Source of the DNA: Massospora cicadina
Lineage: Eukaryota; Entomophthoromycota; Entomophthoromycetes; Entomophthorales; Entomophthoraceae
Direction: 5' to 3'
Assembly: GCA_022478985.1 (NCBI GenBank)
Contig: JAKSZP010007882.1
Location: 372,001-436,000 of the forward strand
Length of the DNA: 64,000 bases
Shown here: positions 7,525-32,834 of the stretch, piece by piece
Layout of the letters: every line of letters begins with the position of its first letter
Numbering within the stretch: the first letter of the stretch is position 1
Notes under the pieces: generated by a model
What the model was told of the DNA's origin: nothing
Database searches by the model: none
The model's input: only the letters and a program-made list of their open reading frames with translations
Position numbers and translations under genes: made by a program

Positions 7525-7566
7525 GACTGGAATATAAACCCTGAGTTTTCCAGATTTCATCTTTAA

Positions 7567-8707
7567 TGTCTAAAAAAAGTTCTGTCTCCGCCTACCACAA
7601 TTTTGTTGCTTCACTTTAAAACAAATAATGGCATCAGTTTAATCAATTAAATAGAGCTATGCAAATGCATATGTTCATAGGCTCTCTCTGAGCAGCAGAT
7701 TTGGGTCAACTCATTCCTGCACCAACGGTCATGACATCAACTCATCCATAAACCATCATTGAGGAAGAGGTTATCCCAGTTGTTGATCCTACCCAAGATC
7801 AGTGGGGTGCGAACTTCATTCATGTGCTTCAACAATTATTCTGGTGGATATTTTCAGGCGTATTTTTGATCCCAGAGAGTCAACCTTTTCGCTCTAATTG
7901 TTATATCAGGATGGCAATCTTCTGGCGGAGTTTATCTTTGGACTCGGCCATTTTCTGATGGCATGAGCCTACAATGCAGTGTTGGGTTTATTCAACTATT
8001 CACATCAAGGTCAACCTCATAATGAAATGAGAGTAAATATGAGCGGCTTTTTAACCCCATTTGTCTTTTTGCTTGCTGAGGATCTCACCATATGACCTCA
8101 AGATTTTGTTCAGGTCAATGGCTTTGTGGAGGAGGTCCTTAGTTCCTTGTCCGTGCTTCTTAAAAATCAGCCCAATTTTGCTTTTTCCTTGGGCCTGAAC
8201 ACTCACAATGTTCAGGATGTTCACTTCCACTTGGCTGTTTGGGCAGCTTTTAAGGCCCTTCATCAGGATAGTGCTAATGACTACCTTCTGAGAATGGCCT
8301 TACTTGACCATCTTATGCATATCATTCCTGATCAAATGCCTTTGGGCCAGCTTTTGCATGTTTACACCCTTATCAAGCGGTGGGAAACCCAGGTATATCA
8401 TGTTTGACTTGAGACTACAGAAATGTACCAGTACCAGACTAATTTCCTAGTCAATTGTCTTCTTCTAGGCGCTTGTTTTCCACCCAATTGTGGGATTGAT
8501 CAGATTATGGTAAATGGGTTTGCACCTCCCCTCCCAATCGTTCTCTGGGAGTCATCTACCACAAGCACATGGCACATCTGGCTTTATGCTCCTATGGTCC
8601 TTTTCCTCATCACCCAGCAACTAGATTGGGCCAAATTGACTCATAAAGATGAGGAATTAGGATCTGATTCGCCTCCCCCTCAAAGCAGAGAAATAAAACC
8701 TTGCTAG
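7567..8707 (+). pseudogene. E1 antisense ORF (opposite strand to pol)
   Basis: A plus-strand reading frame runs from an ATG 55 bases inside the LTR to a TAG at 8707, with a few stops and shifts. The clearest open parts are 8126-8407 (93 codons) and 8423-8707 (94 codons), plus 7710-7930 with one stop. It is rich in hydrophobic and aromatic residues. A short block, LVNCLLLGACFPP, resembles LMDCLALGTAFPP in B's antisense ORF at about 27.38 kb. No known domain is recognised. It converges tail-to-tail with integrase across an AT-rich block. Confidence 0.5.
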
Positions 8708-8935
8708 TTTATTTTTTCATTATTAAAGTTTAATTTTATTATATATATAATATTTCTTTCTTATATATTATATATTATTATTATTATTCTTACTATTTAT
8801 TAATTATTGATTTTTTGTTTCTTTCTTATTATATTTTTTGTATTTATTATTTTCCTATAATTGTGTATATTTATTTTTCATTTTCTTTTCTCTAATTAGC
8901 CCTCTTCCTAAATCTTCCTAGGAATTTTGCATGGA
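8708..8935. other. AT-rich block between convergent ORFs of E1
   Basis: This is a T-rich and TA-repeat stretch (long runs of tat, tta and ttattatta) just after the antisense ORF ends and before the integrase C-terminus. A-rich sequence on both sides of a convergent pair could supply polyadenylation signals for both transcripts. No gene is seen. Confidence 0.4.
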
Positions 8936-8939
8936 CTCA

Positions 8940-9560
8940 ATTATATATATGGCCTGTTTCAACCTCTTTGATGGTTTAAACAAACCTTGACGTTTTCTCA
9001 ATAACCTCAAATGGGCCAGCCCAAATGCGATTTAACTTCTGTATTTGGCCCAATCCGTGCTAATTGCAGAATAGTACCTCTTCTCTGACTTAAAATTTGG
9101 TCAAATTGTATTAATCCTTAAAATCCTTTTTGTGTTGGGCCTTTTTAACAGCAAAATTTTTGTCAAAGGCTTAAGCTTGCAATTTAATTAGGCTTTTGGC
9201 AAGCTCTCAACGTATTGAGGATAACTGCTTTCACCAGGATCTTCTAGGACTGAATAAAGCAGTGATGGTAGAGCTGGATGTTTTCCTATAAGACCTGAAA
9301 TGGTGACATCTTGGTGGCAGAATGATATAAAATGTTGTAAGCGAACACAGCCAAGCTATAAAATGTGCTCCATTCAAATGGTTTGCTTGAGTTTAATTTT
9401 TGTACAATTTTCACAAGCGTCCCATTTACGTGCTCAACTATTCCGTTTGTCTCTGGATGGTAGGGAGCAAAGATTACACCTCTCACTCTCATCAGCTGAT
9501 TAAGCTTTGTAATAACGTTGGCCATGAAATTGCTTCCATTATCAGTCAGATTAGCAACAC
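8940..9560 (-). pseudogene. E1 integrase, C-terminal half
   Basis: The open stretch 9286-9525 contains YHPETNGIVEHVN, the gypsy integrase block with the third catalytic acid, then NILYHSATKMSPF. Further down are a PSLLYSVLED block and a C-terminal barrel (GPFEVIEKT). The catalytic Asp residues upstream are absent because the element jumps from the gag-side ORF straight to this point, near 9.6 kb. Confidence 0.7.
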
Positions 9561-9682
9561 AGTCATTAGTTGCTGATAACTGTGTTTTAAGATCTATATT
9601 TCTTTAGTAAGTTTGATGTTCTTTGCTTGCAAAGATAAAATTGTTGAACGAAGTTCCATAAATCCTTCATGAATTTGTGCAA

Positions 9683-10600
9683 TTATTTCTTGTTATTTGG
9701 TCCTACTTGAATAGAAGCCAGATCTTCTTTGCTCTTTTGCAATATGCCCAACTCAGTTTGGACATACTCATCAAGTTGAACATGTATGAGCTTCAATTCC
9801 AAGTGATTTTTCTGAGCAGGTGTGGAATCTTTGGTTAAACGTTCAGTTCTAGATGATAGAAATTTGGAGTAATTCTCCATTTTCTGGCAGCATTTGCTGA
9901 TATTACTGACCCATCCGCTGGCCAGTCCATGTAATGAGAGAACCTCAGCTGCAACTTTTGAAACCTTTTCATTAGTTGATCTTTCAAAAGTGGTTACTCT
10001 TCTGTGTGCATCATTGACCTGTTCTGTATTACTTACAATAGCCTTTCTAACTTCAGTAAAGCTAGAATTTAGCTTATCTATTAGGTTTTATCAGCAAGAT
10101 CGCTCCTCCTCTTGAACTCAGTGTACTTCTGCAAGCTAGGTTCTGCTGAGCCAAAATCCTTTAGGTGTGCTTAATTGAGGGCTGTACAAAGTGAACCAAG
10201 AACTCATTTGTTACTTATGTACAGCTGAGACGTTTGTCAAGAGTTGCCATGGTCGCCTCCTTGGTACTACATATACATTTCCATCTTGAAGGCCTGATCC
10301 TTCAAGTATTAGAATAGCCCAAAAGATGGGTCCATCTGCAATGTACTGATCCTATACTCATAGAATAGGGTCTCCATCATCTACTTAACACTATCAGAGG
10401 TAAACTTGATAGGGCCAGTTGTGCTCACATTCCCCCCTCCCGCCGTGATTAGATCCAAGGAGTATGAAGTACCTCCTCATTATTCTGGCGTGCAGTGTTG
10501 AAGTACTCAGTGATTTCTCTGTCACTAGTTTCCATGTATTTTTCATCATATCTTCTGGCAGAATCTGCCTGAAATTTTGATGAATTATTCATAACAAAAG
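9683..10600 (-). pseudogene. E1 gag-side ORF with coiled coil
   Basis: An ATG near 10592, about 20 bases inside the primer site, opens MNNSSKFQADSARRYDEKY and runs some 60 codons to a stop. In another frame, about 10090 to 9683 is open for about 136 codons. It is rich in heptad-like Glu, Lys, Leu and Val (FTEVRKAIVSNTEQ, LDEYVQTELGILQ), suggesting a coiled coil. By position it is the N-terminal part of gag; no capsid motif or zinc knuckle is seen. Confidence 0.5.
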
Positions 10601-10614
10601 TGTAAAGTGGATTT

Positions 10615-10626
10615 TAGTGAGCACCA
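10615..10626 (-). promoter_or_regulatory. E1 primer-binding site (partial)
   Basis: Plus-strand tagtgagcacca retains the last twelve bases of the 18-mer shared with A and H, including the terminal CCA. It lies two bases from the 5' LTR (10629). The remaining six bases have drifted. Confidence 0.6.
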
Positions 10627-10628
10627 CT

Positions 10629-11678
10629 TGTGATAAATTAAGGACTAGCTCGCTTATTAATGTATTCCTGTACAATAGTGGGGAAGAGTTTCAGCTAACA
10701 ATCCTTGATTATGCTATGTGTCTTACAGTATTTCCTAACCGTTCAGAAGCTCACAAAGCTAAACAACAATAAATGACTCTTCTGGTCTTCTTTTGGGTAT
10801 ATTTTCCCTCTCTAATTAGGAACTCTCCAGACACAGGTAATTATGACAGCTCCCTATATGCTTGTCTACACTCTATTTTATAAAATCGAAATTAAGATAG
10901 GATGAAAATATGAATATATAGAAAAATGATTTTATTTTAGGGCCAGGCGCCGATATCATATACCTCTAGGGCATTTCCTAGCCATACTCATCTATTAGAT
11001 GTTTTCATTAAAACCATGCCAATCCGCTATGGATTGTGGCAGTGGCTATTAAAATATCCACAAGTTAATTTGGCCCTTATATTAACATAATTAAAATTGT
11101 TTCAGCCCAATTGGAGGCGCTACTACTCTCATAATTGGGAAGATTATTAGCTTAGTAAGCACCTCAGTGGTTTAAATTCGCCTCTGGATCAGCCCAATTA
11201 CGTTTCATCATACAGCTGATGAAATACAATAAATGGGGAGAATAAAAAATATAGAGTTCAAATTATGTTGCACCCCTAATCAGGACGTCAGCAGGCCTCT
11301 CAATAGTACTAGGTACTCCCTATTTGGCTGTCCATTTGCAAGTACAATTGTGCTGATTATGATAATTGACATACATTAAAAATAGATTCATATTCAGTTT
11401 TTCATTAAAATCATAAATGCATTTAGGTTTGTGCCATAGATCACTTGGTTCACCTAAGTTGGAACCATAATTGGACATAAACTACTATATCATAGCTATT
11501 ATTAGCTACAATAATTGGGTCATTAGACGCAATCAAGGCAGTTTTGAGGTGATTCTGATTGATCAAATTATTCAGATAAAATCGGGAAGGATCAAAGGAT
11601 CCATCAATGGGAGTAATCTATTAGCATTGATGGTATTCTCAAAGGGTTTATTTTCGAGTCAAACATCAAAATCTAACA
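10629..11678 (-). repeat. E1 5' LTR
   Basis: It runs from tgtgataaatt to aatctaaca, collinear with the 3' LTR at 6457-7512 and with scattered substitutions. The ggcgcc box (about 10947), the taattggga-type motifs and the region of the 11-bp hairpin are present; one hairpin arm has mutated (agctacaata). The divergence between the two LTRs shows that E1 is not a recent insertion. Confidence 0.85.
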
Positions 11679-12560
11679 GTCATCAATATTATAGTTGATT
11701 GATTCCCAGTAACAGTACTGGAAAATCTGGTCCATGGTTTTCCTTAGGCAACTATGGATGATGACTTTGTGCGCAGATTATTTATATATACTCATTTTGA
11801 TAGCTTTTAAAAATAAACTTTTCCATCAATCATTTTAGTAATTAACCATAATTCATCTCAGTGTTTTCCATTGCTTTTCTTAGTGCATCTTTAATTTCTT
11901 GGGTTTCGTCTCTAACATTGCCTTCAATCATCCATTAGAAATAACTTGTCCACTTGATGATAGACAATTTGGACAGCAGGTAATCTTAACAAACCATCAG
12001 AATTTTGATGCATTGTTCTGGACCAGTGTAGTATCTCAAAATTATAGGCTTGTAACTTTAAGTTCACCAGGCCAGTCGCCCCTCTGGTGCCTTCAGGTTA
12101 TGGAGCTAGCATGACAATGAGAGGTCCGTCACCACTTTAGAGAGCTCTATTAATGTACACTTGTAAATGCTTGCATGGTTAGATCACCACCTGGCATTCA
12201 TGCTCCATTATGGTATAATTTCTCTTTACTGGCGTTATTGTTCAACTCACATAGGCCACTAGATGTTCTTCCTTATCTTCATTTTCTTGACCCAAAAATG
12301 GCACAAATTGCCATCAAAAAGCATCAGTTTGGATAAAATATTCCCAATCAAAATTTGGGTACTTAATTCAGGATGGTCATCAAAATCAGCGTAATTCATC
12401 AATTGACTATTGGGCTTCTTCATTCCTCACAATCATATCTTGTATCCTATAATAAGTGGAATAATAGCTCCGCAACTCTAGTGTAATTCTTAAAGAGTTG
12501 GCAATAGTAGACTACTATACCAAGAGATACTTGGATATCCTAAACGCTCTTTGGGAATGA
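11679..12560 (-). pseudogene. Element H: RNase H and start of integrase
   Basis: Minus-strand remnants include NYTIMEHECQVV, an LKLQAYNFEILHWS block and NSDGLLRLP, which closes an RNase H domain of the gypsy type, then KMIDGKVYF and QYCYWESINYNIDD, the start of the integrase zinc finger. The order and wording match B's RNase H at 28.8-29.5 kb. The rest of the zinc finger is on the far side of E1, below 6457. Confidence 0.6.
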
Positions 12561-13420
12561 CATACGTTTGATTGCCATAATCCTCTGCTGATGGGGTTAC
12601 AGCACACTGGAATTTATCACAAATTCCAAGTACTCAAGCTCTTTCTTGTTGAAGTGACAATTATTTGGCTTGATTTTCAAGTTTGCCATTGACAGGCGCT
12701 TGAACAATCTTCTAAGTGCTCCAAATGGTCCGTGAAGGTCCTGTTGAGTACATTTACATCAACCAGATATATAAGACGCAGGATAGCTTCAGATCACTGA
12801 GGATAGAGACCATTGCTCTCTGAAATGTGGCCAGCGCGTTACACAATCCATGGGGCATTCAGATCAGCTGATAAAGTTCCTATGCAGTAATGATCGCACT
12901 ATTTTCTTGGTCCTACTTTGGCAAAACTAATTTTACAATATCTTAAGATTAAATCTATCACCAAAAAGTATTTAGCGCTCCCTAGGCGATTGAGCACGTT
13001 GTCAATCCTCAGCAGTGTATGATAATCCTTATTAGTGATTTTGTTAAATTGGTGATAATCAATCAATACTAAATTTGATCTGTTCTCCTTTTCCACTATG
13101 AGGATTGTATTCGCCCATGGACTCAATGATAAAACAAGGATCCCATGATCAACTAGCCTGATGATTTCTTCGCTGACACCAGATTCAGCAGCTCTAGACC
13201 TTCAAACAGGTCTCATCCTTTTTTATCACTAGTAGTTGGACAAGTCTCATCCTTATTAGAAAATCTTTCCCAGTGTCAACTTTATGGATTACATTCTTCA
13301 CACATCCTAGGTCATGGCCATCTTGGGCAAATATATCACAATATCTCCTAAATAATTAAAGAACATCTTCTTGCTGCTGTTTGGATAAACCAACCAGCCT
13401 CTTTCAATCCACTAAAACGT
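12561..13420 (-). pseudogene. Element H: reverse transcriptase
   Basis: The leader FAQDGHDLGC..NVIHKVDTG (about 13.3 kb) is followed by SPWANTILIVEKENRSN and FNKITNKDYHTL (12899-13126). Then, through frameshifts, come a palm block with FREQWSLSSVI and YLVDVNV near 12765, where the family has YLDD, so the first catalytic Asp of the pair is Val. The thumb begins with NCHFNKKELEYL. It is very similar to B's RT at 29.8-30.6 kb. Inactive. Confidence 0.7.
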
Positions 13421-13929
13421 TGAAACTCCTAGCAGTATCCACTGGTAATCCCATTTCATTTTTTTCTTAAAATTATGGCATTTGTTGATTTCTTCTACTT
13501 TATTAGATACAGAAAAGCTCGACTTAATTTTCTTTATCTTCATCAGTTGCTTTCCCAGATTAGCCAGTAGTACATTTATATCTCCATGTCCCATCATGAT
13601 TATCCATGGCGCTACCCATGGTTCAATTCTTGGTTTCCTCTATGGGATAACGACTTTTCCTTATAGTTGCTCCAGGATTTCGAGCATTAACCCTATGTTA
13701 GTGATTATCTGCGTTCTTGGTGGTTTGATACTTGTCATTTTTTCTCAAGAGTATACCGCCATTTTCTAGGATCTCTTTTAGCAATTCTTTCTGTTTTCGC
13801 TAACCAACTTGTACTGGATGGGAACAATGCCATCATTGTAAATAAAGGTTACAAATTATTCTTCTTAGCCAGCGGTGATTCTCTATCCCACTGATATACC
13901 AAGGGCAAGGTCTTCCCCATAATGATCAG

Positions 13930-14270
13930 GGTATTCTACTCAAACTTACATCTAACTCCATAATTTCTCAGGAATTCCGTCCCATGAGTATATCATAATT
14001 CTTATTAGCCAACACAATGGCGAGAGTTGATACCATAAGTGAATCAAACTGGAGTGGCAATGCACTGTAGTCTCCACAGGGTATTGTCATATCTGGTCCA
14101 GCCATTCCATCTTCCTTCTGGTGTTCTAGATCCAGTGAAATCTTTATTCATTATACTAGTTGAGTTAAACAACGTTGATGAGCACTCCACTGTCAATGAT
14201 CGTCCTCACTCTAAACTAGTTAGTTATAATATCCACATAATAACTTTCAGAATATTGTAATATAGTATTT
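13930..14270 (-). pseudogene. Element H: aspartic protease
   Basis: The minus strand reads VRTIIDSGVLINVV near 14.19 kb, matching AIIDTGAPVNI in B and keeping the catalytic Asp in DSG. About 75 codons later comes LANKNYDILMGRNS, the C-terminal strand of retropepsins. Frameshifts lie between the two. The stretch 13421-13929 between RT and PR shows no recognisable domain; by position it is the linker seen in B and D. Confidence 0.6.
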
Positions 14271-14639
14271 ACTGAGTGATTGGCGGCATTATTTGATAAA
14301 TCAAGAGTATATTAGTCATTCAGATAAATAAGAGAAAAACTCCTAAATTGCAATAATTGGGATAGATATGTTCTCTTCATCTAATCTAATATTTAGTAAA
14401 TTTTTCCTGGTTCTCAGCGGATCTAGTCTTGTCCTCTAGCTGATGAAAGTACAGTCAAGTCACCTACTATACAATTTTGGGGTCAATATCCTTTGTCTTG
14501 GCTCAGGTAATGGCGTTCACGTCCATGTTAATAACCTCTATAGTGGGTCAGTTGTTTCATCATCTACAAAGAGATTAGAAATGTCTATATCATAATTCAT
14601 AATAATATGAGGAACAGGTTTAACCGCGGTGTCAGACTG

Positions 14640-17066
14640 TTCCTGGTCTAGACCGTAGGACCTTTTTCCATCTCCTGACTGATTTTCTTCTCCTTCGCTT
14701 GGACTAAGGTAACTTGCTCCTTAAGTTTTCTTGCTCCAACATTGAGCAGCTATAGGTCCTGGTTTCCCACATGGGTGGCAGAAGATCTGCATCTTGTCCA
14801 CTCATTTTTGTACTTTTGGGCTTGTTCCCAACATGCCTCAATCTGGTTGCTCCTTATTTGTCTCAGTGAATTTTACAGTACTTTTTGTTAAGTTTCCAGT
14901 CAATGGTGCAGGCTAAAATAACTTAAAAATGAAATTGAGGATTTAAACTCGCTTTTCAAATGAAACTCCTGCTCTTAATTGGGAAGTAGATTCTCCAATA
15001 ATCCTTGATAATAGCCAAGTAACTCCAGTACGCTCACTGTTCTCAAGTCTACTGGCACCAACAAATACAAGACCTTCTGTCTTCGTACAAAATTTAGGAG
15101 ATTATTCCTCTATGATTGGGACTACTTCTCCGGCAGTCAACTATGTACTTCTCTTTGGGAAGAATAAACATACACAACTATCTAATATAGACATAATGAC
15201 AACAGATATGAATATCAGACAGACGACAGATGGATAATAATTAATAAACTAAGTGACAGTAGTTATTAATGATTAATAAAATGGTAAATGCTGATTTGTT
15301 GATGTTTTATTAATTGGCCAGGCGCCAGTATTATATACCTCTCAGGCATCTCCTGGACAAACTCATCTATTAGATGAGTTCATTCATATTATGTCAATCC
15401 TCTGCTGGTCATGGCAATAATTATGAAAAATCCCCAAGTCAATTTGGCCCATGAATTGACTAAAAATAACAATTGTTTCAGTCCAATTGAAGGCAATTTT
15501 ACTCTCATATTTGGGATGACTTTGGGTTTTGAACTCAACATTAAAATCTTCCCGATTAGAGCTACGTCATAACTTGACATCTAACAATAAATGAGGAATA
15601 AAACATATATGATCATAAAAGATGACGCACCCCAATTCAGGACGTTGGCAGGCCTCTCAATAGCACTAAGTACGCCCATAATTGGGACATCTATGTTTAA
15701 GTGCTTAATTATCAATTTCAATAATCAAACCCAACTTCAGCCTTAGTGCATTAAGATTAATGCACTAATTTAGGAGGCGCAATTTAGTTAATGCTGTGAG
15801 ACCACTTTGCACCCAAGTGGAACCATAAGCAGCCATAATATGATTATATCATAGCTATTATTAGCTATGATAACTGGGCATCTCAGATGCAATTAGAGCA
15901 GTTATGAGGTGAATCTGATTTATCAGATTATGCAGATGAATTGGGAGGATCAAAGGATCCATCAATGGGAGTAATCTATCAGCATTAATGGTTTTCTCAA
16001 AAGGTTTATTATCGAGTCAACCATCAAAATCTAACACTTTTCTTGAGTCTGGATCACTTTGAATGTCAGTTTGGGGCTTCAAAGTGGCTCCCAATATCTT
16101 TAAATGATCAACCATTTGAGATGTGGACATTTGTGCTATTAACGCTGAAGTCATTGGATAATGAAAATCATGATAGGGCCATAGTACCGCTTGCATCATG
16201 ATTTTGGTGTCAAAATATGTTATCATATTTTTACTGGCCAGTATCTGCGATTTCTAGTAAAATTGATCTGCAAAAACTACTAGGGTCTCATCTTTTTGTA
16301 AGTAATACCCATAAATTCCTGTCTGTGGTTAAACATACTTGTAGGGCTTCCAAATTCTAACGTAATGGCTTCCTTGACATCATGATAAGACCAATTGTCC
16401 CTGTTTAGTTGGGGTAACACCAGATTCTGACAATCAGTGTTCATGCAGTTCAAAACGGTCACTGCCTTTTGTCAGTCACTGAATCTGAACATAATCATCT
16501 TTATTAATCAGAAAAATGCATGGACATTATCCTTATGGAATGAAGGTAATTTTGGTGCTCGTCAAAATTCATCTGTGGTCCACTGGCAGGGGAATCCTAC
16601 CTGATGACTCGATTGACCATGTGAGTAACTTTGGGAGTCATTTACAAACTTGTCTAAATGACCCAATTCTATTTTTGGGTGGTAAATCTTCCCAACTAGA
16701 GTTTCAGGAGTGCTGTTGTCAGTTTCTTATGCCTCAATTTGCTTACAATAACATTTATGGTTCTCCAGTTCTTCTATACGCTTCAATTGTCATGCCATCT
16801 CTTCACTAAACTGGTTTAAGCATCAATGATCCATTTCTCATTCTGCCATCTGAAACAGTACTTATTTAATCTACACTCCTTGCGCTTCAAGGAGTTGACT
16901 TTTCCACAGAGGTCATTGTAATTTTACCAACTTGTTCAACTCTTACTTGGCCTTTGTCACCCATTCTCTATTACAGTGAAATCAGCCTGTAACACCAAGT
17001 TGAGTGCGTTCTTGTTGACAGTCTCTAGTTCTATCCAGAGCGTGCGTAGTTTGTTCTTATATGACA
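14640..17066 (-). pseudogene. Element H: gag, interrupted by a solo LTR
   Basis: The frame opens at an ATG at 17066, about 45 bases inside the primer site (MSYKNKLRTLWIELETV, possibly a coiled coil). The capsid block WSYHDVKEAITLEFGSP at 16280-16462 matches A's gag. A damaged zinc knuckle lies near 14.78 kb: C-x2-C-G-x2-G-P-x4-C, with Pro where His is expected. Stops and shifts are frequent. The solo LTR 14886-16036 separates capsid from knuckle. Confidence 0.65.
14886..16036 (-). mobile_element. Solo LTR inserted in H gag
   Basis: This is a 1.15-kb LTR beginning tgttaagtttcc and ending aatctaaca, flanked by a perfect 5-bp duplication ctttt (14881-14885 and 16037-16041). It is homologous to the E1 LTRs over most of its length, with a diverged left part. 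It has the ggcgcc box (near 15321) and the perfect hairpin at 15847-15872. No internal sequence remains, so it is the product of LTR-LTR recombination. Confidence 0.85.
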
Positions 17067-17112
17067 TGTTTAATTCGATCTCCTTATTAAAATTGGCGAA
17101 AAACTCAACTAC

Positions 17113-17130
17113 CCCCTGTAGTGAGCACCA
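17113..17130 (-). promoter_or_regulatory. Primer-binding site, element H
   Basis: Plus-strand cccctgtagtgagcacca is identical to the site in A and lies two bases from the LTR start at 17133. Its CCA end marks pairing with the 3' end of a tRNA. Confidence 0.75.
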
Positions 17131-17132
17131 TT

Positions 17133-18165
17133 TGTTAAAACTGAGGAAATTATAGTGATCTAATAGGGCACCAATTGTTAATTATCCAGGATCCGTTCAC
17201 TCTTTTTATAGTAAATCACTTCAACCTCTTGTTCAACTGCAAAGGTTCCTTGTATATGCGTTGTTTAAATAGTTGTTTCTTTGATTATGATGGACAGTAA
17301 CAGTATAAAGACTACTACTCTAGTTGAGCTTCTTTTAGCCAAGATGATTATTATCAGGTCCAACGCCAACATGGTGCTTGTCTGAATCTTAAATGGTATT
17401 TTAAAAAATCTGTGGAAACTTCTTCCCTCTTTGTAGAACTTAAACTTGGCTCAGGTTCAGAGGTTCTTCCCATCACTTCTCATCATGCAGAGTCCGCAAG
17501 TATAACAGTAATTTAAACAATTGATATTATTGCCCTTACAGCTTCAATTATAAGAGCAGACAGTCAAAATTATAAAACTTTATTTGAAAGTGATTTTTAT
17601 CACATCTACTTTATTGAAAAAACCAAAGAAACTTATAGGTAATTCAATGCCCACTCTTTGGTTGGCGCCTCAATTGGCTAATGGCAGCTATCGCCAATAT
17701 ATTAATTTTTAAGGGTCGCATAAAATGATGATCATTCTCATTGCATTGATTGGGTTCTCTTCCCTGTTTAAATGCAACCTCTTCTAGGTTAAATTAGAAC
17801 ATGTTCCAACACCATCACTCAAACTCATCTAATTACCCTTATTAGTTAATAACCTGCTTAGATAATGGGACCCTTACCCATAAACAGCATGTTATGATCC
17901 TAAAATAATAACTTAAAAGTTGCTCTATCACAGTAGGCTCTACTCGCCTAGAAACTCATAAGCCCCTTATTTGATCAGCGACCAACTGAATCAACTACAA
18001 GTCAATTGAGTTATTGATTTTAAAATCGACTCCCTTTTAACTTGTATATAATTGGGGATCATCTCTGACAAAACACTCATCAATCCAGCAAATTTGTAAT
18101 TAAGCGGATGAATAAATATTTTCTGAGAATATTTCGCAGATAGTAGTTGTCATATGAAATTAACA
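17133..18165 (-). repeat. Element H 5' LTR
   Basis: It runs from TGTTAAAACTG to aaattaaca (TG..CA), about 1.03 kb, directly outside H's primer-binding site. It carries a ggcgcc box (about 17667) and an aataaag-like signal on the sense strand. Its reverse complement aligns in patches with L's LTR at 3381-5038. No second H LTR was found, because the 3' end of H is lost around 5 kb. Confidence 0.65.
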
Positions 18166-18900
18166 ACTCCCACATCACTATTGGGCTAAAGCTCCTAGTG
18201 GTCAAGCAGATGAACCATAATCAATGAAGCTGGGTAATGTGGGCAAAATTCCCAACAATGCCTAAGAGCTTACTTTCCCTTGCCCAGACATTCTTATTCT
18301 TATTAGTGTTTCCCCCTGCTATAGTCTTGCACAACGATTCCTATAAAATGCTTATTAAGACTTAATTCTTTGTGATTTAAATATCCAAATTAGCTTCAGT
18401 GACATGTATTTCTCCATCTTAGGATACCGCATTCCGCTTATTGTCAAAGGTTTGCTTAAGAAGAAGGGAAGAAGAAAACTTCATAACTGCATTATAAAAC
18501 ATCCCAAGTTTCTGAAGAGACTTGAATATCAAGAGATGGTCCTTAAGGTTACTCTTTTTCCCTGTGGTGGATGCTCTAGAATTAAAGTCCATTTTCCCAT
18601 CAATAAGACAATAATATCCTCAAATCTCTCTTTTGATGGAAACAGAAATTCAAGTAACTGAAATTCCTGCACATCTTTAGAGATTTTTGGAATATCTAAT
18701 CCGTCAATTTAAGAACCCTTGACCTTCCCTGACATACTTGACCCTACATATCAGTGGACCAAGACTGTACTAATAGCAAACCTTACTGATCAGCCCTTGA
18801 CAATTACTCAGAACCACCCCATCATATATATCCATATCTTACATGTAGAACAAGCTAACTCTATCTGCACATATGGATCATAAAATGTTCTAGGACTTAA
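18166..18900 (+). pseudogene. Element F: region upstream of RT, unassigned
   Basis: A plus-strand open stretch at 18404-18661 (85 codons) contains a Lys/Arg-rich block (KKKGRRKLHNC) and CGGCSRIKV. Its position before the RT leader suggests the end of gag or the protease, but no DTG or zinc knuckle can be pointed to. The remainder is broken in all frames. Confidence 0.3.
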
Positions 18901-20400
18901 AGAGGATTCAATAACCACACAAAAGTTGTTAAGTTTGGCAACACCTTAACCGGTGATCAACAGCAAATAAATGAGTCATTAATTGAGGAATACGCTGATA
19001 TCTTTTTTCAAAGGTCCTGATGCTTTTGGGCTAATTAAAGAGGTTAAACACAAAGATTATACATGATACTTTAAACCCGCTGGTCTTGACCTTATCAGAA
19101 ATCCAATATTAAAGAGGCCCAAGTCACTCAGGACCTAAAACAACTGCTGGACGCTGGCCCCCTAAAGCCCTCTCAGAGCTCTTAGGCTTCCCCCTGTTAC
19201 TGATCTGCAAGAATAATGGCAGCTACACAGTGCATTCAAAAAGTTCTTGGACTAACGTTCTAAAGGCACAACTTTACAAATAAATAAACTTTCTTTTATC
19301 ATAATTTAACATACAACCTTTCCCTCTCTATACATATTTATATTGCTAAAACAATTGTTAAAAGGTATGCACATAGTTCCTATTTTGTATAACCATGTAT
19401 AAACCAGCTGTCACATTCTTCTGAATTGTCTCTACTTTATCAAAAGAATGAACCTTCAGTGCCACCCCAGATTATAATTATCCACCCTATTCACCAGATT
19501 TGGCTCTGTCTGACTTCTTTCTGTTCTCTAATCTGAAGGTGGCACTGAAGGTTCATCCTTTTGATAAAGTAGAGACAATTCAGAAGAATGTGACAGCTGG
19601 TTTAAACATGGTTATACAAAATAGGAACTATATGCATACCTTTTAACAATTGTTTTAGCAATATAAATATGTATAGAGAGGGAAAGGTTGTATGTTAAAT
19701 TATGATAAAAGAAAGTTTATTTATTTGTAAAGTTGTGTCTTTAAAACGTTAGTCCAGAACTTTTTGAATGCACTGTGTATCATGTTGGAATGGATTATTG
19801 AAATATGAATAAGATCATGTAAAAGGATAGCCACCCATTGCTTCAAATTGATAACTCTCTCCAACTCATAGTTAGATCTCAGACTTCTCAACTATGGATT
19901 TTGCTAGTGGATACTTGCATATTGAGCTAGCTCTTGAAGACAGGGAGAATTATGCGCTTTTTTTCAGGGAAGTCCTGTTGAAGCCTACCCGCATTCCTCA
20001 GGGTTGTGAAGCACCCCTGCAACCTTCCAGTGGACAATGGATGGTATGCTCTAAGATCTGAAAAGTTCTGCATATTGGTCTATCTGAAAGTTGTCACATT
20101 ATTCTACCAAACCTTCAATGAGAACTTGAGGCACTTTTGAGAGGTTTTTGATAAAATGAGAGCTGCATCTATCAAGTTGAATCTGACCAAGTGCAGTTTT
20201 TTCAGAGTGAGATGGAGTTCCTCAGCCATAAGGTTACTCGTGAGGTATTACCAATTGCCTGATAGAATTGAACCCATTTAAAAGATGTTTCGCCCCCAAA
20301 AATTGAGGGATGTGAAAGTATTCTTGGGGATGGTCAATTACTACTGACACGTTATCCCTTATAACACTAAATTTTCTAACCCCCTTATCTAACCACTCCA
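18901..20400 (+). pseudogene. Element F: reverse transcriptase, split by a mariner derivative
   Basis: The plus strand gives the leader (NESLIEEYADIF), DLKQLLDAGPLKPS and SPxLLICKNNGSY up to 19225. After the mariner insert it resumes as HVGMDY..MNKI, then LLQIDNSL, a palm strand and ILVYLKVVTLF near 20080, where YLDD is expected, so both Asp are lost. KLNLTKCSFF and KVFLGMVNYY give the thumb. Removing the insert and one TA rejoins the frame across the break. The NYY-type connection and order are standard gypsy. Confidence 0.65.
19226..19777. mobile_element. Fold-back mariner derivative
   Basis: This 552-bp palindrome is flanked by TA on both sides (19224-19225, 19778-19779). Two arms of about 250 bp in inverted orientation differ at only a handful of sites. 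They flank a spacer of about 50 bp. Each arm is the 3' end of a mariner element. The right arm plus spacer encodes the C-terminal transposase block (plus, about 19478-19646) with PPYSPDLALSDFFLF, which contains the third catalytic acid of the DDD triad, then a stop. The 5' half of the transposase gene is absent, so it cannot encode its own transposase. A transcript would fold into a long hairpin. Confidence 0.85.
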
Positions 20401-20930
20401 TAAGGAAGTTCTATTTCACTGGGAGGAATCAAAATGACAAGCTTTTAACTCTTTTAGAAACTCTAATGAATGCTCCATCTTGGACCACCATGAGTTAAGC
20501 AAGCATTTCTTTTTTTCATTGATGCTAGCCATGTTGCGGTTGGAGCTAACCTAGCACAACATGATTCCAACCAAGATGATCACCACATTTACTACTTCAG
20601 TAAAACCTTAACCAAGGAAGAACGGAATCATAGCATTATGGAACAAAAATGCTTAGCGGTACTCTTGACTATCAAGCAATTATAGCCCTACCTCTATGTG
20701 TAGCATTCTACTATTGTAACTGAGCATGAGTCACTTTGGTGGTTACAGAAGATGAAGGACCCAGATGGCCGGCTAGCACGTTGGGCCCTCAAGCTACAAG
20801 TTTATGACCTCTCAATAGTTCTATCAGGCGGGAGCTATATACCAAAATGCCAATGGACTATCTCGCTTGCCAATATTAACTTAAATGCACCTTAAGAAGA
20901 TTGTATATACAAATTTATATGTCAACCAGA
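20401..20930 (+). pseudogene. Element F: RNase H
   Basis: The plus strand gives FFIDASHVAVGANLAQ (about 20.51-20.56 kb), with the first catalytic Asp of RNase H in place, then IYYFSKTLTKEERNHSIMEQ with the second acid and LAVLLTIKQL. The region closes with GRLARWALKLQVYDLS. There are a few stops. It would degrade the RNA template during cDNA synthesis. Confidence 0.65.
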
Positions 20931-21049
20931 AGCATGGGATCAAGAGTCCCCAAAGGTCCAAGAGAAGTTAAAGAGAAAATGATAGTCAAACCTCAAATAA
21001 ATTATGGACTACTTTATAAGAAGGTAGCTCTGCTTGGGTCCACTATGTC

Positions 21050-22100
21050 CATCTGTCAGACAGTACTACAACCATTATGGAAGCAAATATGACTGTAGGT
21101 CATGGCACCGTGAAATAAAGCTACAAGTGTCTCAATAATTAATGCTACTGGGATGACATGATTGATTGCATCCACTATGTCCTTGACTTATGTCTTGTAT
21201 GAGTTAAACAGAGGCCTACTATGGCTAATTTTCAACGTCAAGTCATTGGACAACTTCTCTATTTTCCAATGTGAGTATAGATGTAATTGGACCACTATCT
21301 ACACCCTAATATGGACATCGCTACATTATTATTGCTCTCAACCATTTCACAAAGTGGGTTGAGGCCATCTCTGTAGTCTCCACCATAGCTTAAGATACTG
21401 TCTCATTCCTGCTTAAGCACATTTTCACCAAGAATGGTAGCTCAAAATTACTACTGTCTGAAAATGGGATAACCTTCATATTAAAAGTTGTGACTAAACT
21501 TATTGTATTATAAGAACTTATTAGGTTACTATTTTCTACAAATAAGCAACCAATGGTGCCATGGAACGAGTTAATGGCGCCATCATTTCCATATTGCAAA
21601 TGATGGCACAAACTGATCTGGGTTGATAAAATGAGTACCTTCCAAGGAGCTCTGATGTCTTACCAAGTGAGCTATCATAAAATCATCTAGATGTCTACAT
21701 CTGTAGCTCTGTATGGGAGGGATCCTGTTTTAACCTTCAGTGTTTAGCCTATCCTGGAGGCCTCCTTGCCAGAAACCCCTGACTTAGCCATAAAAAGGTT
21801 AGTGAAAGGTATATCTAGGTTACAAGCCAAAATTTTTAGATCCCTTAAAATTGTCACCCAAAGGGAGAAAACAAGCCAATGCCACAAAGCCTCTTATGCC
21901 AGAACACTAATTAGGAAATCTGGTAATGCTTTATCATCATCGCCCTGGAGGGATAGCCCACAAATTAGATGTGTTTTTGGTTTAAGCTTATAGGGCGATC
22001 TACCATCATAGCTTGAGTATTTCAATGCTTCTATCAATATGGGGACAATTGGTAATCAGGTTCACGGAAGATCTCACTGCAGCTATGTTGCACCTCAGCA
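21050..22100 (+). pseudogene. Element F: integrase
   Basis: Parts in order: YWDDMIDCIHYVLDLCLV (remains of the CxxC of the zinc finger), GHRYIIIALNHFTKWVEAIS (core strands), SKLLLSENGITFI (second acid drifted from Asp to Glu), a C-terminal segment at 21766-21993 (LQAKIFRSL..) and a last block AYRAIYHHS. Shifts are common. It ends just before the polypurine tract at 22105. Confidence 0.6.
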
Positions 22101-22104
22101 GGAT

Positions 22105-22117
22105 CATGAGGGGGTAA
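22105..22117 (+). promoter_or_regulatory. Polypurine tract, element F
   Basis: Plus-strand atgagggggtaa lies directly before a TGTCAG LTR start, at the place expected after the integrase C-terminus. It sets F as plus-oriented. Confidence 0.5.
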
Positions 22118-22805
22118 TGTCAGAAAAGGCTGAAATCAAGTCAGTTCAGTCAAAGATTAAATTTTACTTGAATCTCCCTTTAAACTTCAGAAGATGTTGA
22201 TCTATGAAACATTTGAATGGACCATTGTCCTAAAGGAATTATAGGGCCAAAGTGATGCTGAAACCTTCCAGGAGAGTGATGAAAGGTTCCCCTTCCTTGA
22301 TAAAAGGCTTCATCTCCTCCAAGTCTTTGGAAAGATCTTGACAATAACAGGGGGCAATACCACGCTAAGATTACGACCCTTTAAGACTATATCTGTACCC
22401 TCTTTTGATTAGATAAAGTACGTTGTTTACTACCCTGTCACGCTTTGATTACTGCCATAGTGTATAGATCTAGTGAATAATATCCCATTAGGATGAACGC
22501 TATAGTAAAATGACTCATAATTTTTTAACCTTCAAAGAAACTGGAAATTAAATAGGATTTTCTGAAAAGTGATTATTACTGTTATACGCATAATTTTGAA
22601 GTCACGCTGATAGCTAGCTGAAATAAAAGATATAAAATGTTAAGGATAATATTAACCTTAATTTTATACTTATTAAAAATCTTTAATCTGGTTTTAAGAT
22701 ATTATGAAATTCTACCTAGCTGGCCAGGCTTTTTCTTCCCGTCCCAACAATCTTTTGGTACTCCTGTCAAGTACCCCTGAGCCGTAGTGAACCTTGACAA
22801 TTGCT
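22118..22805 (+). repeat. F 3' LTR and possibly G 5' LTR
   Basis: This is non-coding sequence between F's polypurine tract and G's first ATG. It starts TGTCAGAAAAGG. A TATA-like gataaaagg lies near 22280. No matching second copy was found, so whether this is one LTR or two abutting ones cannot be settled. The stretch cctgagccgtagtgaacc near 22778 faintly recalls the shared primer site but is too diverged to call. Confidence 0.35.
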
Positions 22806-24850
22806 ATGGACAACAATGACTTAATTTCAGACTCTTCTTACTTTTTTAAAACTTTTCCCTCAATGAGTGGGAAGTTAACACAATTGTAGATTAACCTGTT
22901 GCCACTTCATGTAATCTGAAGCTACCAGCTCCTATGGAGGTGGGCCTTACCATTCCATCCACTGAACATTATCATCTACAGCTTTCAGACTTCTCAGATT
23001 CCATTCAACACCTTATCACTAGGGCCTTTGTCCCAGGTAGATGAGCTAATCAAAAACAAGATTTATCTTGTAAACTTAGACAATAAATCTACTCTCTACT
23101 AATAACTTAAACGCTGATTAATTTAGAGTAGGGAGTACTGAGCACTACTTATGTCAATTCGTCCACCCGGCACTTATATAGTTATGCAGATGCAAGATTC
23201 CATCATCAAGAACTTCTCTGACACTTTAACCTTCCATATACTTTACATACTCAACTCTTAGAATTCCTATAACTCTTCTTCTTTTTTGATGGATAGAATC
23301 AGAGTTAAGTATTTGACAATTACCATCTCTTTAACAAAATGAAGTCTTAATTAAATTGCCTCTATTAAAAGAGATCAGATATGTCCATCTGTACTATATA
23401 ATAACTTAGTGTTTTAGAAGTCAGTTTCCAAAACCAGATCAAAATTAATTCAACTGAAATACAATCCCAGAATGACGCCCTGATAGATTCTCGTGGTCCA
23501 AATAAATTACTAAGTTATTAATTTATTAAGCCCAATAAAAGTTGGTCAATACTTATTTTTTGGTCCTCTGGGATGCCTGGTCATCCTGGGCCCCCAAAAG
23601 ACTTATAATACCTGGGCCTACTAGAACTCCTGGGATTTATGTACCCCCTGGAAAACCTGGTGCACCTGACGCCCTGGTATTCAGGTAAGACCTTGCCCCT
23701 GTTCCTTTAGGGCCGATTAACAGTTTGGTGATTATGGAAGACAGACTCACCCTTTTAGTGCAGCAGATGAAATTGCTTAATACCCAGTTAGGACGCGTTG
23801 CTATGGGTAGTGAACTCGCTGTGATGGGGTGCCTTTAAATTCTGAAGTCTCTCTATCTGCTCACATGGTCAAATTGTAGCCTTATCAGAATTACCTGTCT
23901 CTATGCAAGAGGTGGATTAGAAAATTAATACTGTTAAACAGTATCAACTCATGCTTAAGGAAATGACTTCTATTATATAGATTGAGGTTAAACAGTCTTT
24001 TTGGAACTTTCCTAAGATTTACCTTCATACAGCCACAAGAATATTGATCTTTTACTAATGATTTGATCAAATTGAGCAATAAAGTAGATGGCAATTACCC
24101 ACTCAAATATCCCTGTTAAATAAAATTCTATTGGGCTGAATTTGTAACTCCTTCTTTAATCCATGTAGCTAACCAGCCTCTATGGGCATTGTATCTAAGA
24201 TCTCTTTTATAGAAATATGTCTTTTGGAGAAAGAAGTATCTTTTCCTACATGTACTGTTAAAAGAGCGCTCTGGAGGATTTTACTAATCAGAAAAAGCAC
24301 AAGGATTTATTCACTTTACTAAGCCAAGTTGCCTAAAATATTATGGTCCCACAATTAATGAATTGTTGCAATTTGTGCAATGCTAAGTCCGCATAGATAA
24401 ATAATTTTGGAGTGATATAATCTTGGAAAAATAAAATTGGGCTTTCATAGGGATAAGCCTCAATCAAGGAGAATCTATTAAAAAGTTTTCTCAAAGGTTC
24501 TATATTTATGCTAAAACTTTGGTTGTGGGAAATTGAATCACCTTGGACGACTCCATACATCTTCTTTATCTGAATTCCATCCATGTCCAATAATCAGTTG
24601 TAAATCAAGGCAGTTAAGCCCAATCTTGTCTCAAGCTGCACATTAAAAAGCCCTTACAATGGATCATCCTTATCTCCTAAATACTGGTGGACTTTCTCGC
24701 TCTGCACCTGAAGCTTTACCACACAATCTAGCTATGATGCCTCCCATATCTTCTACCCTGAGAAAGTTCTGCGCCTATTGCAAGAGTACCACTTACACCA
24801 TAGATAGCTGCTTCCATCGTCCTCAGAATGATGCTTTATTTGTGTTATAG
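22806..24850 (+). pseudogene. Element G: gag with Gly/Pro-rich tract
   Basis: It opens at ATG 22806 (MDNNDLISDSSYFFKTF). Near 23566-23690, after allowing shifts, there is a collagen-like run of Gly-x-Pro/Pro-Gly units (SGMPGHPGPP, then PGPTRTPG and PPGKPGAPDA). MEDRLTLLVQQMKLLNTQLG follows, a likely coiled coil. The C-terminal part at 24659-24850 has a Cys cluster, KFCAYCKSTTYTIDSC, in the place of a zinc knuckle (CxxC then C, with no canonical His). There are many stops. Confidence 0.5.
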
Positions 24851-24929
24851 GAGCTTTACTGTCCCAACATGATGAAAATCTCGTAAATCATTTCAACTAC
24901 TAACCAAAGTTATTTAACACTAAAATTAT

Positions 24930-25300
24930 TTTGTAAGGAAATGCGAGTGCTTGGCAGTCTTAATGGCCAATAAACCTCTCTAGCCCTTTCAATATGGGGA
25001 CACTTCATTTGCCTACTGATCATACATCCTAGCGGTAGCTCCAAAAATTGAAAGATCCTGATAGGCGCCTAGCTTGTTGGGCTTTAAACTTCAAAAATAT
25101 GATTTTTCTATAACTTATCACCCAAGTTTAAGAACCAAAACGTGGATTGCTTGTCCAGATTACCTATCCTTATTATATTTGAGTACTGAGGAAGATTGCC
25201 TCGTTAAAATCTTAAGCCAACCTCATATTGAAAGAAGGAACCTATTTTAATACAAAGAATTTAGAAAATGGTAAAAATATACAAATTTATGATGGCAAAT
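24930..25300 (+). pseudogene. Element G: RNase H remnant
   Basis: The plus strand gives LLGFKLQKYDFSITYHPSL followed by a degraded NVDCLSRLP-type ending (WIACPDYLS), the last block of gypsy RNase H. Protease and RT are missing between the gag Cys cluster and here, so G has an internal deletion. The frame then runs into chromovirus C1 at 25314 and resumes as integrase at 38231. Confidence 0.55.
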
Positions 25301-25313
25301 CTCTACATACTAG

Positions 25314-25957
25314 TGTCAACAGCCAGGGACTGGTGTACTACTGACCTGATTGGTGGTAGCTAACCATGAGCTAGCATAACCAAGGGGTTTGATCCAGTAT
25401 GATAAGTACATTAGAGGTGTCCAGGTATAAGGAATGGTGGGTAAGCTGGCATGGGAGTTGCCTAAAGACATGGTTTTAAATGGGAAAAATTGGAAGGGAG
25501 TTTCTTGTAGTCTGGGGTGGTGGATCGGGACTGATAACACTTTAGTAAAAAATCTTGTTAGTGTTTGCATGATACAGAATATTTTTATTGACCACAAAGA
25601 TTAACCAAATGAATGCCTTGATTTTATATACCATCCAACTTCCTGTACTTACCTAAGCTTAATTGATTTTAAAACAGTGCACTATTATTCTCTGGAGCTT
25701 ATGGGATTGTAAATTGCATGTGATTTTGAAAGAAAGTGGAAATTGTCTCAGTCTCATTGTAAATTTGGTTTGGTGCGATTAACTGACAAAATACTATTGC
25801 AATTGAGGTAAGTTAAATGATTAATCGAACATTTTCACTACAACTATTCATTTAATATGCAATTATTCGATCTAACTTCATCACATATCCTCCTTATCTG
25901 CTGGATGATGTCTGTAATCTCAGAATTTTATTAATGTCAGGATTTACCATGACATCA
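25314..25957 (-). repeat. C1 3' LTR (without the SINE)
   Basis: It is collinear with 37453-38230 from agggactggtg to the gtcaggatt block. At position 25576, where the 5' LTR has a 131-bp insert, this copy reads agaatatttttattgacc without interruption and so shows the empty site. On the minus side the polypurine run ggtggggga sits just outside (25958-25966). Confidence 0.85.
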
Positions 25958-26048
25958 TCCCCCACCAAGGCTGAAGCTATCTGAGAGGCCTTCTTCTTCC
26001 ATTTCTTACACACCTTACCTGCATTTTTTAAGTTCTCCTCAGGCTCCC
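25958..26048 (-). pseudogene. C1 chromodomain, distal half
   Basis: The minus strand reads EPEENLKNAGKVCKKWKKK, which completes the chromodomain begun at 33.43-33.52 kb (GYLAEEST then a Trp changed to stop). The two halves are separated by element B. The frame carries on through the polypurine tract into the LTR and stops at 25894, as is common for the last pol codons. Confidence 0.75.
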
Positions 26049-26614
26049 TGTTATAAAATTGCAGTATAGCAATGATACACTGAGGGTTTTGCACAGGGGT
26101 ATGACCACTGAGCAATAGGACCAAAGATATGAAGATTGTCATCCTTGAATCAATTCAATAAACTTTTTAATGAATATGGAGCAATTGCCCCACTGACACT
26201 TCTTTATTTGATATAATACCTTCAGTGGATCCTTCCTAGTTTTCTCACTCTCTTCTTACTAACCACCTCCTCTCTTCAATCGCCTCAGCTCTCTTATATC
26301 TCAGCAACTTAGATGATACCATTTTCTCAGCTTAGTAATTTTTATCACTGTATCTCATTGGTTCCGGCAGAGTTCATCAACTATTAATTAATGATTACCT
26401 AGTTTGAGGCGATTACCAATCATTTGTCATGCATCAACATATCCTAACCACCTAATCACTACATCTTCGGTGTACTTCCTTCTATATAGTGAGGTCAACT
26501 TCACTCATCAATTCAGATACTCAATAATACTCATATAGGCCTAACCATGATGTTAATTAATGATCCGCTGATAATTATTTTGGCTTATCATCCAGTCATA
26601 TAGATTTCTTGACA
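26049..26614 (-). repeat. B 3' LTR with adjacent polypurine tract
   Basis: It runs from TGTTATAAAATTG to tttcttgaca, 566 bp, collinear with 32835-33401. Just outside, plus-strand ataccccctttg (26615-26626) is the complement of a polypurine tract. The LTR sense strand is related to D's LTR start (tatgactggatgataag). Confidence 0.85.
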
Positions 26615-26654
26615 ATACCCCCTTTGACTGGACAATAAGCCATACAACGTTTCT

Positions 26655-27926
26655 TTGATCAACACAATGCAGCTTACCACACGCCAACAACCACAAGCTC
26701 ATGACTTTAACTTTTTCTTCCAATTATGGCTTGACGCAGATCTGACTGACCCAGGTCGCATCCCACTCCACCGGTTCCCTCTTCCTCTGGCCAATAAAGG
26801 AGATGCCAAAGTGGACGCTGTGGCCCTTTTAGCACAGGATGAGCTCCTTCCTGAATTTGTTGGTCATCTGTCTGCCTAGCATGCCCCCTTTGGGGACATA
26901 GTGACTTAGTTGCGCTGGAGAGGGGATTGGAGCCAAGGCCCTTCATTTAATGAGGCAGCCAGCTCCTGGCGGACAGCTTCAGCCATCTAGTGCTTCCGCC
27001 TCCTACTGAGCCTCATCCCATAGTACTATCAGTCTGACGAGTGCTGTGCTTCATGAAGTGGGTGATAGCCAGCTGGTCAGGGCCCTTTCCCCACGCTCCT
27101 ACCCACTTTTAGTCCCTAGGGGCGCAATTCCAAAACAACCAGTTGAATCACATGCAATCTGGAATCGCCACAGTGTTTGCCAGCCTTAACGCCAACAACC
27201 CATCCCAATACCTCCTCATCATGGCGCTTCTTGGCAACATGATTTTTTTCATCCTGTGGGTGAGTTAGGGTCAGGGATGGAGCAGCACTGGGCGACCCTT
27301 GAGTGGGCCTGTCAAGCAGCATTTACAGCGGCCGCTTCTTTCCCAGCTGCCTGTCCCATCATGGAGGACTTCCTCATGGATTGCCTGGCTCTGGGCACGG
27401 CCTTTCCCCCCAAGCCAGAACTCAACTTCTTGTGCGCCTGCCCTTACAACTCCGTCCCCTTCTTCTCAGGTAAATGCTGATCTCTTGAGAGCTTCAGCGC
27501 ATGTGGTTTCAGGCTTTGCTTCTAGTGGGGCAAGAGCAAGTTCATTTTGATCTTGAGCAGCTGGCCAAGCTATCGCCATCTCGCCTGTTACCTTGGGTCC
27601 CCAGTACATCCTCCTCCTCCAGTTACGCCAACCCATCCTCCCCTCCATTAGCTGGTGCGATGGCCCCAGAGCGGACACCAACTCTCTCGCCCTTGATAAG
27701 GTAGCCTCTGCCCCCACCACTAAACCTAGAAGGGTTCAGAAAATATGCACCACTTCTAAAGCAATGAAGAAAGAAACGTGGGTCCCACCAATCAAAGCGC
27801 AAGAATTACCATAAGAAACTGAAAAGGAGCAGGAAGAAGAAGACAGCTTGGCAGAAGATACAAGAGCCAACACCAATAAACTTAGCTTATATACCCACAT
27901 GATGATGATCTTTTTCTTTTTTAAAT
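26655..27926 (+). pseudogene. B antisense ORF (opposite strand to pol)
   Basis: The plus-strand frame opens at an ATG 40 bases inside the 3' LTR and closes near 27926, with at least three frame changes. Open parts are 26655-26879, 27256-27480 and 27501-27814. The N-terminal third reads FPLPLANKGD..VALLAQDEL, weakly like FPFLSKKVSK..VPLVTQGDL in K's antisense ORF. The middle has LMDCLALGTAFPP as in E1. The C-terminal third is Pro- and Ser-rich, then highly charged (Glu/Lys). It is locally more GC-rich than its surroundings. No known family is recognised and no transmembrane segment is convincing. Confidence 0.5.
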
Positions 27927-27989
27927 AAATCTATTGCTGTTTATATGCCCAAAAGAACTTTGTGTGCACTCGGTTAATAATTTGACCAC

Positions 27990-28830: not shown

Positions 28831-28833
28831 TTG

Positions 28834-30572: not shown

Positions 30573-30599
30573 TATGCTGGACTTGAATCGATTAGCAAA

Positions 30600-31477: not shown

Positions 31478-31499
31478 AATACCCTCCCCTACTTTAAAT

Positions 31500-32833: not shown

Positions 32834-32834
32834 C

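What the first reader, a model, noticed from the sequence alone, without database searches (positions are those of the whole stretch)
7567..27926. Antisense ORF between integrase and 3' LTR in several related gypsy elements
In E1 (7567-8707, plus) and B (26655-27926, plus), pol is on the minus strand, yet a long, mostly open frame lies on the other strand between the end of integrase and the 3' LTR. It starts about 40-55 bases from the LTR. K (52587-54032, minus, with pol remnants on plus) and A (1-180, plus, with pol on minus) show the same relation, so the orientation is consistent in four of four. E1 and B share a short block (CLxLGxxFPP); B and K share a weaker N-terminal block; A and K share their C-terminal block. 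Antisense ORFs in this position are known from plant Tat-lineage elements, and antisense genes exist in some retroviruses, but these sequences match no family I can name.
Basis: partly seen in the sequence, partly recalled or inferred. Interest (0 to 1): 0.75.

Follow-up and report, generated by a model that had tools for sequence, protein, structure and literature searches.

The report
Antisense gene in fungal retrotransposons
Two families of old retrotransposons in a giant insect-pathogen fungal genome carry an extra protein gene that runs backwards relative to their other genes; such backward genes are known from plant elements and from another fungus, but no relative of this protein was found.

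Summary
The window lies in a 1.47-Gb genome, most likely the cicada fungus Massospora cicadina. In E1 and B a frame opposite to pol starts 52-53 bases from the 3' LTR and runs towards integrase. In the window copies openness is weak (as open: 15 of 500 shuffles for E1, 200 of 500 for B), so the proof is comparative. Across 30 E1 relatives one antisense frame of about 370-390 codons stays largely open; shared differences favour third codon positions (positions 2/3/1: 30/114/58), while LTRs of the same loci are flat (45/47/45). An E1 profile finds the protein at the same place and strand in 27 of 30 B-family copies. dN/dS is close to integrase's. Of 68 loci, 68 have the LTR on the expected side and 59 opposite-strand integrase. 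A and K do not support the claim. The layout is a known kind (plant Grande/Retand; Boty of Botrytis); the protein has no relative found. Against: single copies are broken, some stops recur in many copies, the B signal is weak, and no RNA evidence exists. Function is inferred only.

The parts
6457..7512 (.). E1 3' LTR (element on minus)
   Evidence: 91% identical to 10629-11678, K2P 0.082
7566..8707 (+). E1 antisense ORF, broken copy; C-terminal 203-codon stretch 8096-8704 with one TGA
   Evidence: ATG 53 bases from the LTR end; own profile; N half matched in three frames at 7829-8075
8901..9603 (-). E1 integrase remnant
   Evidence: tblastn to B integrase and to the element at 33944-34198; Pfam rve_3 only weak, E 0.016, below cut-off
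10614..10626 (+). E1 motif beside the 5' LTR, putative primer-binding site on minus
   Evidence: 13-base motif shared with A and B, one mismatch
10629..11678 (.). E1 5' LTR
26048..26614 (.). B 3' LTR
   Evidence: 82% identical to 32834-33396, K2P 0.205; right end read
26667..27926 (+). B antisense ORF, broken; blocks at 26667-26876, 27041-27250 and 27338-27463
   Evidence: E1 profile hit 27041-27250, E 6.4e-6; N and C block profiles match all 30 B loci on the + strand, none on -
27934..28529 (-). B integrase core and tail
   Evidence: tblastn to E1 integrase; no Pfam hit for the two pieces tried; zinc-binding part 28834-29289 has Pfam Integrase_H2C2 E 4.1e-7
29776..30605 (-). B reverse transcriptase
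   Evidence: Pfam RVT_1 E 7.2e-22 for 29776-30120; Ty3 RT in PDB E 1e-16; tblastn for the rest
30950..31498 (-). B protease
   Evidence: Pfam Asp_protease_2 E 4.4e-4, below cut-off; tblastn to A protease
32821..32833 (+). B motif beside the 5' LTR, putative primer-binding site on minus
32834..33396 (.). B 5' LTR
1..182 (+). A block, considered and not accepted as part of the antisense ORF
   Evidence: DNA similarity to K only; no integrase beside it
52577..54015 (-). K unit, considered and not accepted as the same gene
   Evidence: E1 profile hits only E1 and B in the window; K and B N blocks not related by hhalign; no LTR or integrase found beside it

Best explanation
E1 and B are old, dead copies of two Ty3/gypsy families whose active ancestors carried a third gene: an antisense accessory gene of about 370-390 codons that lies tail to tail with pol between integrase and the 3' LTR. 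Shown: position, strand, an open frame across E1 relatives, purifying selection in the E1 family, homology between the two families. Inferred: the gene is transcribed from a promoter in or near the 3' LTR, and its probably soluble protein acts in trans as a regulator of the element's own expression or nuclear steps, as has been proposed for the antisense proteins of plant Grande and Retand elements and as HTLV antisense proteins do. My odds: that it codes, about 0.95; own antisense transcript from the LTR side, about 0.7; regulator, about 0.4.
For: One antisense frame low in stops over 15 blocks of 25 codons in 30 E1 relatives, 0.1-3.2%; 24 of 30 have ATG at one column near the LTR. Shared differences by codon position 2/3/1 30/114/58, LTR control 45/47/45, integrase 29/45/22; the N half, not used to choose copies, 18/61/31, one-copy differences flat. 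dN/dS aORF/integrase 0.523/0.467 (B, 29 and 30 loci), 0.518/0.585 (E1 by DNA, 8 and 7), 0.316/0.301 (E1 by protein, 30 and 22); LTR pseudo-frames 0.60-0.80. E1 profile hits 27 of 30 B loci, + strand only. LTR on the expected side 68 of 68, opposite-strand integrase 59 of 68. For the mechanism: own promoter and nuclear protein of Grande (PMC7264820, passages).
Against: No RNA or protein evidence at all. The window copies are broken, B no more open than chance. In the E1 alignment three internal columns bear stops in 12-20 of 30 copies; the other letters there are mostly those expected from CpG decay, but I cannot exclude that part of the family never had a full frame; for that reason too the end of the frame is uncertain. 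The C half of the 30 E1 rows was chosen by protein score. Alleles are not independent, so p values are indicative; one of three random halves gave a shifted order. B has little codon-position signal of its own. dN/dS of 0.52 is only moderately below the LTR range, and one wrong frame gave 0.38. No NLS or DNA-binding domain was found (Pfam none).
Confidence: 0.75

Rival explanations
1. Chance open frame from base composition.
For: B and K window copies are no more open than shuffles (200 and 176 of 500); E1 only mildly so (15 of 500).
Against:: conserved frame, codon-position bias, protein homology between families, flat LTR control.
Confidence: 0.03
2. The antisense RNA itself, not a protein, is what matters: it pairs with the genomic RNA and regulates the element or triggers silencing; the ORF is a remnant.
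For: Non-coding antisense transcripts are known from other retrotransposons (micropia, TART, IAP; PMC7264820 passages). Nothing here tests it.
Against: An RNA role does not predict third-position bias or protein-level homology.
Confidence: 0.07
3. A host or viral gene captured backwards long ago, still active in its old function rather than as a regulator of the element.
For: Position fits capture; antisense genes of plants lack relatives too, and an unknown virus has been suggested as source (PMC11963269 discussion).
Against: No homologue at E<=1 among the scored candidates of a 5.8-billion protein set (41 and 5219 candidates), a set that holds Entomophthora muscae proteins; the search needs shared 5-residue words, so distant sources would be missed.
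Confidence: 0.1
4. An envelope-like third gene.
For: Position between pol and 3' LTR.
Against: Antisense, and no transmembrane-like stretch: best 19-residue hydropathy 1.2-1.4 in four open copies.
Confidence: 0.02

Closest known systems
Antisense additional ORFs (aORF-3R) of plant Ty3/gypsy elements: Grande, RIRE2, Retand, PvRetro13
   Same: [quoted passage not shown] PMC11963269)
   Different: Host is a zoopagomycete fungus; about 370-390 codons next to the LTR; no TRP28 (PF04195) domain
Boty of Botrytis cinerea and Sclerotinia with antisense gene brtn
   Same: Antisense gene in a fungal LTR element (PMC7264820 section 5; the original, Zhao et al. 2011, is not held)
   Different: Ascomycete host; I could not compare the proteins; none found in the protein search, which does not show by itself that brtn was in the set
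Antisense genes of HTLV-type retroviruses (HBZ, APH-2)
   Same: Antisense gene read from the 3' LTR side (PMC11963269 background; PMC7264820 passages)
   Different: No Pfam domain of any sort here; likeness is in layout only

Membership tests
aORF-3R (antisense additional ORF between pol and 3' LTR) | antisense to gag-pol | tested here: met
   59 of 68 loci have integrase on the other strand beyond the frame, 9 have no integrase match
aORF-3R (antisense additional ORF between pol and 3' LTR) | lies between pol and 3' LTR | tested here: met
   LTR on the expected side in 68 of 68 loci (66 distinct places)
aORF-3R (antisense additional ORF between pol and 3' LTR) | conserved to a degree like other element proteins | tested here: met
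   dN/dS near that of integrase in three sets
aORF-3R (antisense additional ORF between pol and 3' LTR) | transcribed in antisense | not testable with these tools
   no RNA data
Retand antisense protein (TRP28, PF04195) | TRP28 domain | tested here: not met
   no Pfam family at E<=1 in 10 of 10 members scanned nor in the window pieces
Boty brtn | homologous protein | not tested
   sequence not at hand; the protein search found no relative of any name
Retroviral env-like gene | sense orientation and transmembrane stretch | tested here: not met
K and A as the same gene as E1/B | same protein or same place in an element | tested here: not met
   weak hit E 0.49 between B and K N blocks told

The most novel reading that the evidence does not exclude
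A previously undescribed antisense regulator gene family arose in, or was gained by, the Ty3 elements of Entomophthorales, and its protein (for instance by countering the fungus's silencing) helped these elements inflate the genome to 1.5 Gb.
Probability: 0.1. Interest if true: 0.75.

Novelty: new member of a known kind. Interest (0 to 1): 0.45.

Why it matters
Antisense third genes are now seen in plants, an ascomycete and an early-diverging fungus. If the proteins prove unrelated, the same layout was invented repeatedly, which points to a shared need. That is testable in Entomophthora muscae, described as laboratory-tractable (PMC11105155 abstract). Gene calling in the Massospora genome avoided transposable elements (PMC9584336), so such genes stay unannotated.

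Tried and rejected
Structure: AlphaFold2 on the single window stretch gave mean pLDDT 40.7, so no fold search was run. PDB by profile: nothing at 0.001 (best E 0.19). Pfam: none. Protein set: none at E<=1. Viral contigs: none. Rfam (gathering threshold) and tRNA scans of the window: none. That K is the same gene: not accepted. That A shows the arrangement: not accepted. Other species' genomes could not be searched (no relatives held). My notebook says 28 of 30; the recount is 27 (L043, L063, L065 miss E<0.01), with a smaller search space, takes in 29 of 30. I first read column 1130 as the end of the frame; one search shows it looks like an internal decay site, so the end lies further on and the length is given as about 370-390 codons.

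Rows dropped: phase counts skip columns under 60% occupancy and, and where stated, columns touching a CpG; dN/dS skips codons with stops or gaps. The 30 tblastn-chosen E1 loci are the best 30 of 150 scored (9655 first-look candidates); the 8 DNA-chosen the best 8 of 40 scored (761); the B loci the best 30 of 40 scored (1378). Each set includes the window copy. L001/L009 and L008/L014 are the same places.
Full report
Host. The window is G000:C6793:372001-436000 of a 1.47-Gb genome in 16,968 contigs. An Ssb-type HSP70 from it is 94% identical to that of Entomophthora muscae and 88% to Neoconidiobolus. Contig C1 has 1,107,499 bases; the Massospora cicadina MCPNR19 assembly is 1.488 Gb with a longest scaffold of 1,107 kb (PMC9584336, part 1 of 3 read). 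I take the host to be M. cicadina or a near relative; the contig count differs (19,694 in the paper). That assembly is Nanopore-based, so some frame breaks in single copies may be sequencing errors.

What is in the window. E1: LTRs 6457-7512 and 10629-11678, 91% identical, enclose integrase on minus and the antisense frame on plus; no protease or RT match lies between them, so E1 is an internally deleted copy. The RT and protease at 12600-14257 lie outside this LTR pair. B: LTRs 26048-26614 and 32834-33396, 82% identical, with RT, protease and integrase on minus. A 13-base motif, probably the primer-binding site, stands beside the 5' LTR of B and, with one mismatch, of E1; it recurs without mismatch at A (2398), 17118 and 60273 (7 matches with up to 2 mismatches in all, 0.88 expected). 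In two other elements of the window with Tf2-1-type SH3 domains (33517-33768, 45365-45829; the second with a weak chromodomain match) the integrase tail lies within about 210 bases of the LTR end, leaving out a nested B in the first, without room for such a frame (inference from coordinates).

Openness in single copies. In any 200 codons E1 has at best 1 stop, matched by 15 of 500 shuffles; B 2 (200 of 500); K 2 (176 of 500).

Relatives of E1. A tblastn search of the own genome with the 203-codon stretch gave 9655 first-look candidates; the 150 scored matched, 149 of them, the window copy apart, at 53-75% identity, with 0-8 stops. In the 30 fetched, the antisense frame has 0.0112 stops per codon against 0.0438-0.0705 in the other five. 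Extended to the LTR, the same frame is low in all 15 blocks of 25 codons (0.1-3.2%); other frames are low in single blocks only and no pol-strand frame is open through the region. 24 of 30 have ATG at one column near the LTR. Three internal columns have stops in 12, 14 and 20 of 30 copies; the other letters there are mostly what CpG decay would leave. The end of the frame is not sharp; about 370-390 codons fits.

Selection. Differences shared by at least 4 copies, which should mostly predate the insertions, fall by codon position 2/3/1 as 30/114/58 without CpG columns; LTR columns of the same loci give 45/47/45 and a 340-base integrase stretch 29/45/22 by phase (p 0.013). Differences found in one copy only are flat, as decay after insertion should be. 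The N half, not used to choose copies, shows 18/61/31. It holds for cut-offs of 2, 3, 4 and 6 copies and without the three rows nearest E1; of three random halves two gave the same order and one a shifted, still uneven one. Copies are related, so p values are indicative; the flat LTR is the control for that. dN/dS of the antisense frame and integrase: 0.523 and 0.467 (B), 0.518 and 0.585 (E1, chosen by DNA), 0.316 and 0.301 (E1, chosen by protein), against 0.60-0.80 in LTR pseudo-frames; in the wrong frames of the same E1 stretch 0.38-1.05. In B the position signal is weak (120/146/129 with one copy as ruler; p 0.27).

Two families, one protein. E1 and B showed no DNA similarity here and none by the first tblastn screen (E<=1e-5), but a finer tblastn links them, and a profile of the 30 E1 rows finds 27 of 30 B-family loci at E<0.01, on the antisense strand only and at the same place. 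In 68 loci, 66 distinct places, the LTR lies on the expected side in 68 and integrase on the other strand beyond the frame in 59; in 9 no integrase match was found.

A and K. In A the block 1-182 lies beside a dUTPase-like stretch (337-783, Pfam E 0.0012, below cut-off) and protease, with no integrase match. K has no LTR or integrase match beside it. K's 40 scored relatives (19,084 first-look candidates) nearly all match the same part, window about 54015-52582: a bounded unit, or a window copy cut off at both ends. K's start has protein-level relatives in the flanks of three B loci (E 3e-12, 1.5e-11, 0.0016), so K may code for something, but not for the E1/B protein as far as these tests go.

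What it is. No Pfam family in 10 of 10 members, no PDB chain at 0.001, no protein at E<=1 among the candidates scored from 5.8 billion, a set that holds E. muscae entries; no usable fold. The layout is that of antisense additional ORFs: plant Grande, RIRE2, Retand, PvRetro13, and Boty of Botrytis and Sclerotinia (PMC7264820, section 5 and passages). Retand's TRP28 domain (PF04195; PMC11963269 passages) was not found. In maize Grande the antisense gene is transcribed from a promoter upstream of it and its protein is nuclear (PMC7264820, passages). By analogy the most likely mechanism is a trans-acting regulator made from an antisense transcript that starts in or near the 3' LTR; this step is inference.

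In print. Ten searches of open-access papers listed no report of an antisense gene in Entomophthorales elements; the main text of the E. muscae genome paper does not hold the word antisense. These searches also missed the original Boty paper, which is not held and was found through a review, so absence here is weak evidence.

Verdict. A real, old antisense gene in two Ty3 families of an insect-pathogenic fungus: a new member of a known kind, with a protein without found relatives, of moderate interest.

Noticed in passing
52582-54015: K unit: 40 scored relatives of 19,084 first-look candidates nearly all match the same 1.43 kb; its start has protein-level relatives (motif roughly AVPLxTQGDLAHxVxERWVT) in flanks of loci L061 and L067. 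Nature unknown.
   Followed up: partly
337-783: dUTPase-like stretch (Pfam E 0.0012, below cut-off) beside the protease of element A; such domains are reported from basidiomycete and rotifer elements and are enriched in Entomophthora muscae (passages of PMC5408684, PMC2864245, PMC11105155).
   Followed up: partly
19239-19765: Inverted repeat with 228-base arms, 96% complementary, 71 bases apart.
   Followed up: no
25325-38230: Ty3 element with Tf2-1-type SH3 domain, LTRs 25325-25957 and 37457-38230, with B nested in it near its 3' end.
   Followed up: partly
44347-50355: Another Ty3 element with SH3 domain and weak chromodomain match, LTRs about 83% identical.
   Followed up: no
60273-64000: Relative of B on the plus strand (gag, protease, RT), cut off by the window end; whether it carries the antisense frame could not be seen.
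   Followed up: no
9683-10087: 134-codon open frame on minus inside E1 with only weak Pfam matches to coiled-coil-type proteins; possibly a gag remnant.
   Followed up: partly
L020:2-1213 (minus): 404-codon open frame beside the antisense ORF of one E1 relative, on the same strand; no Pfam match.
   Followed up: partly
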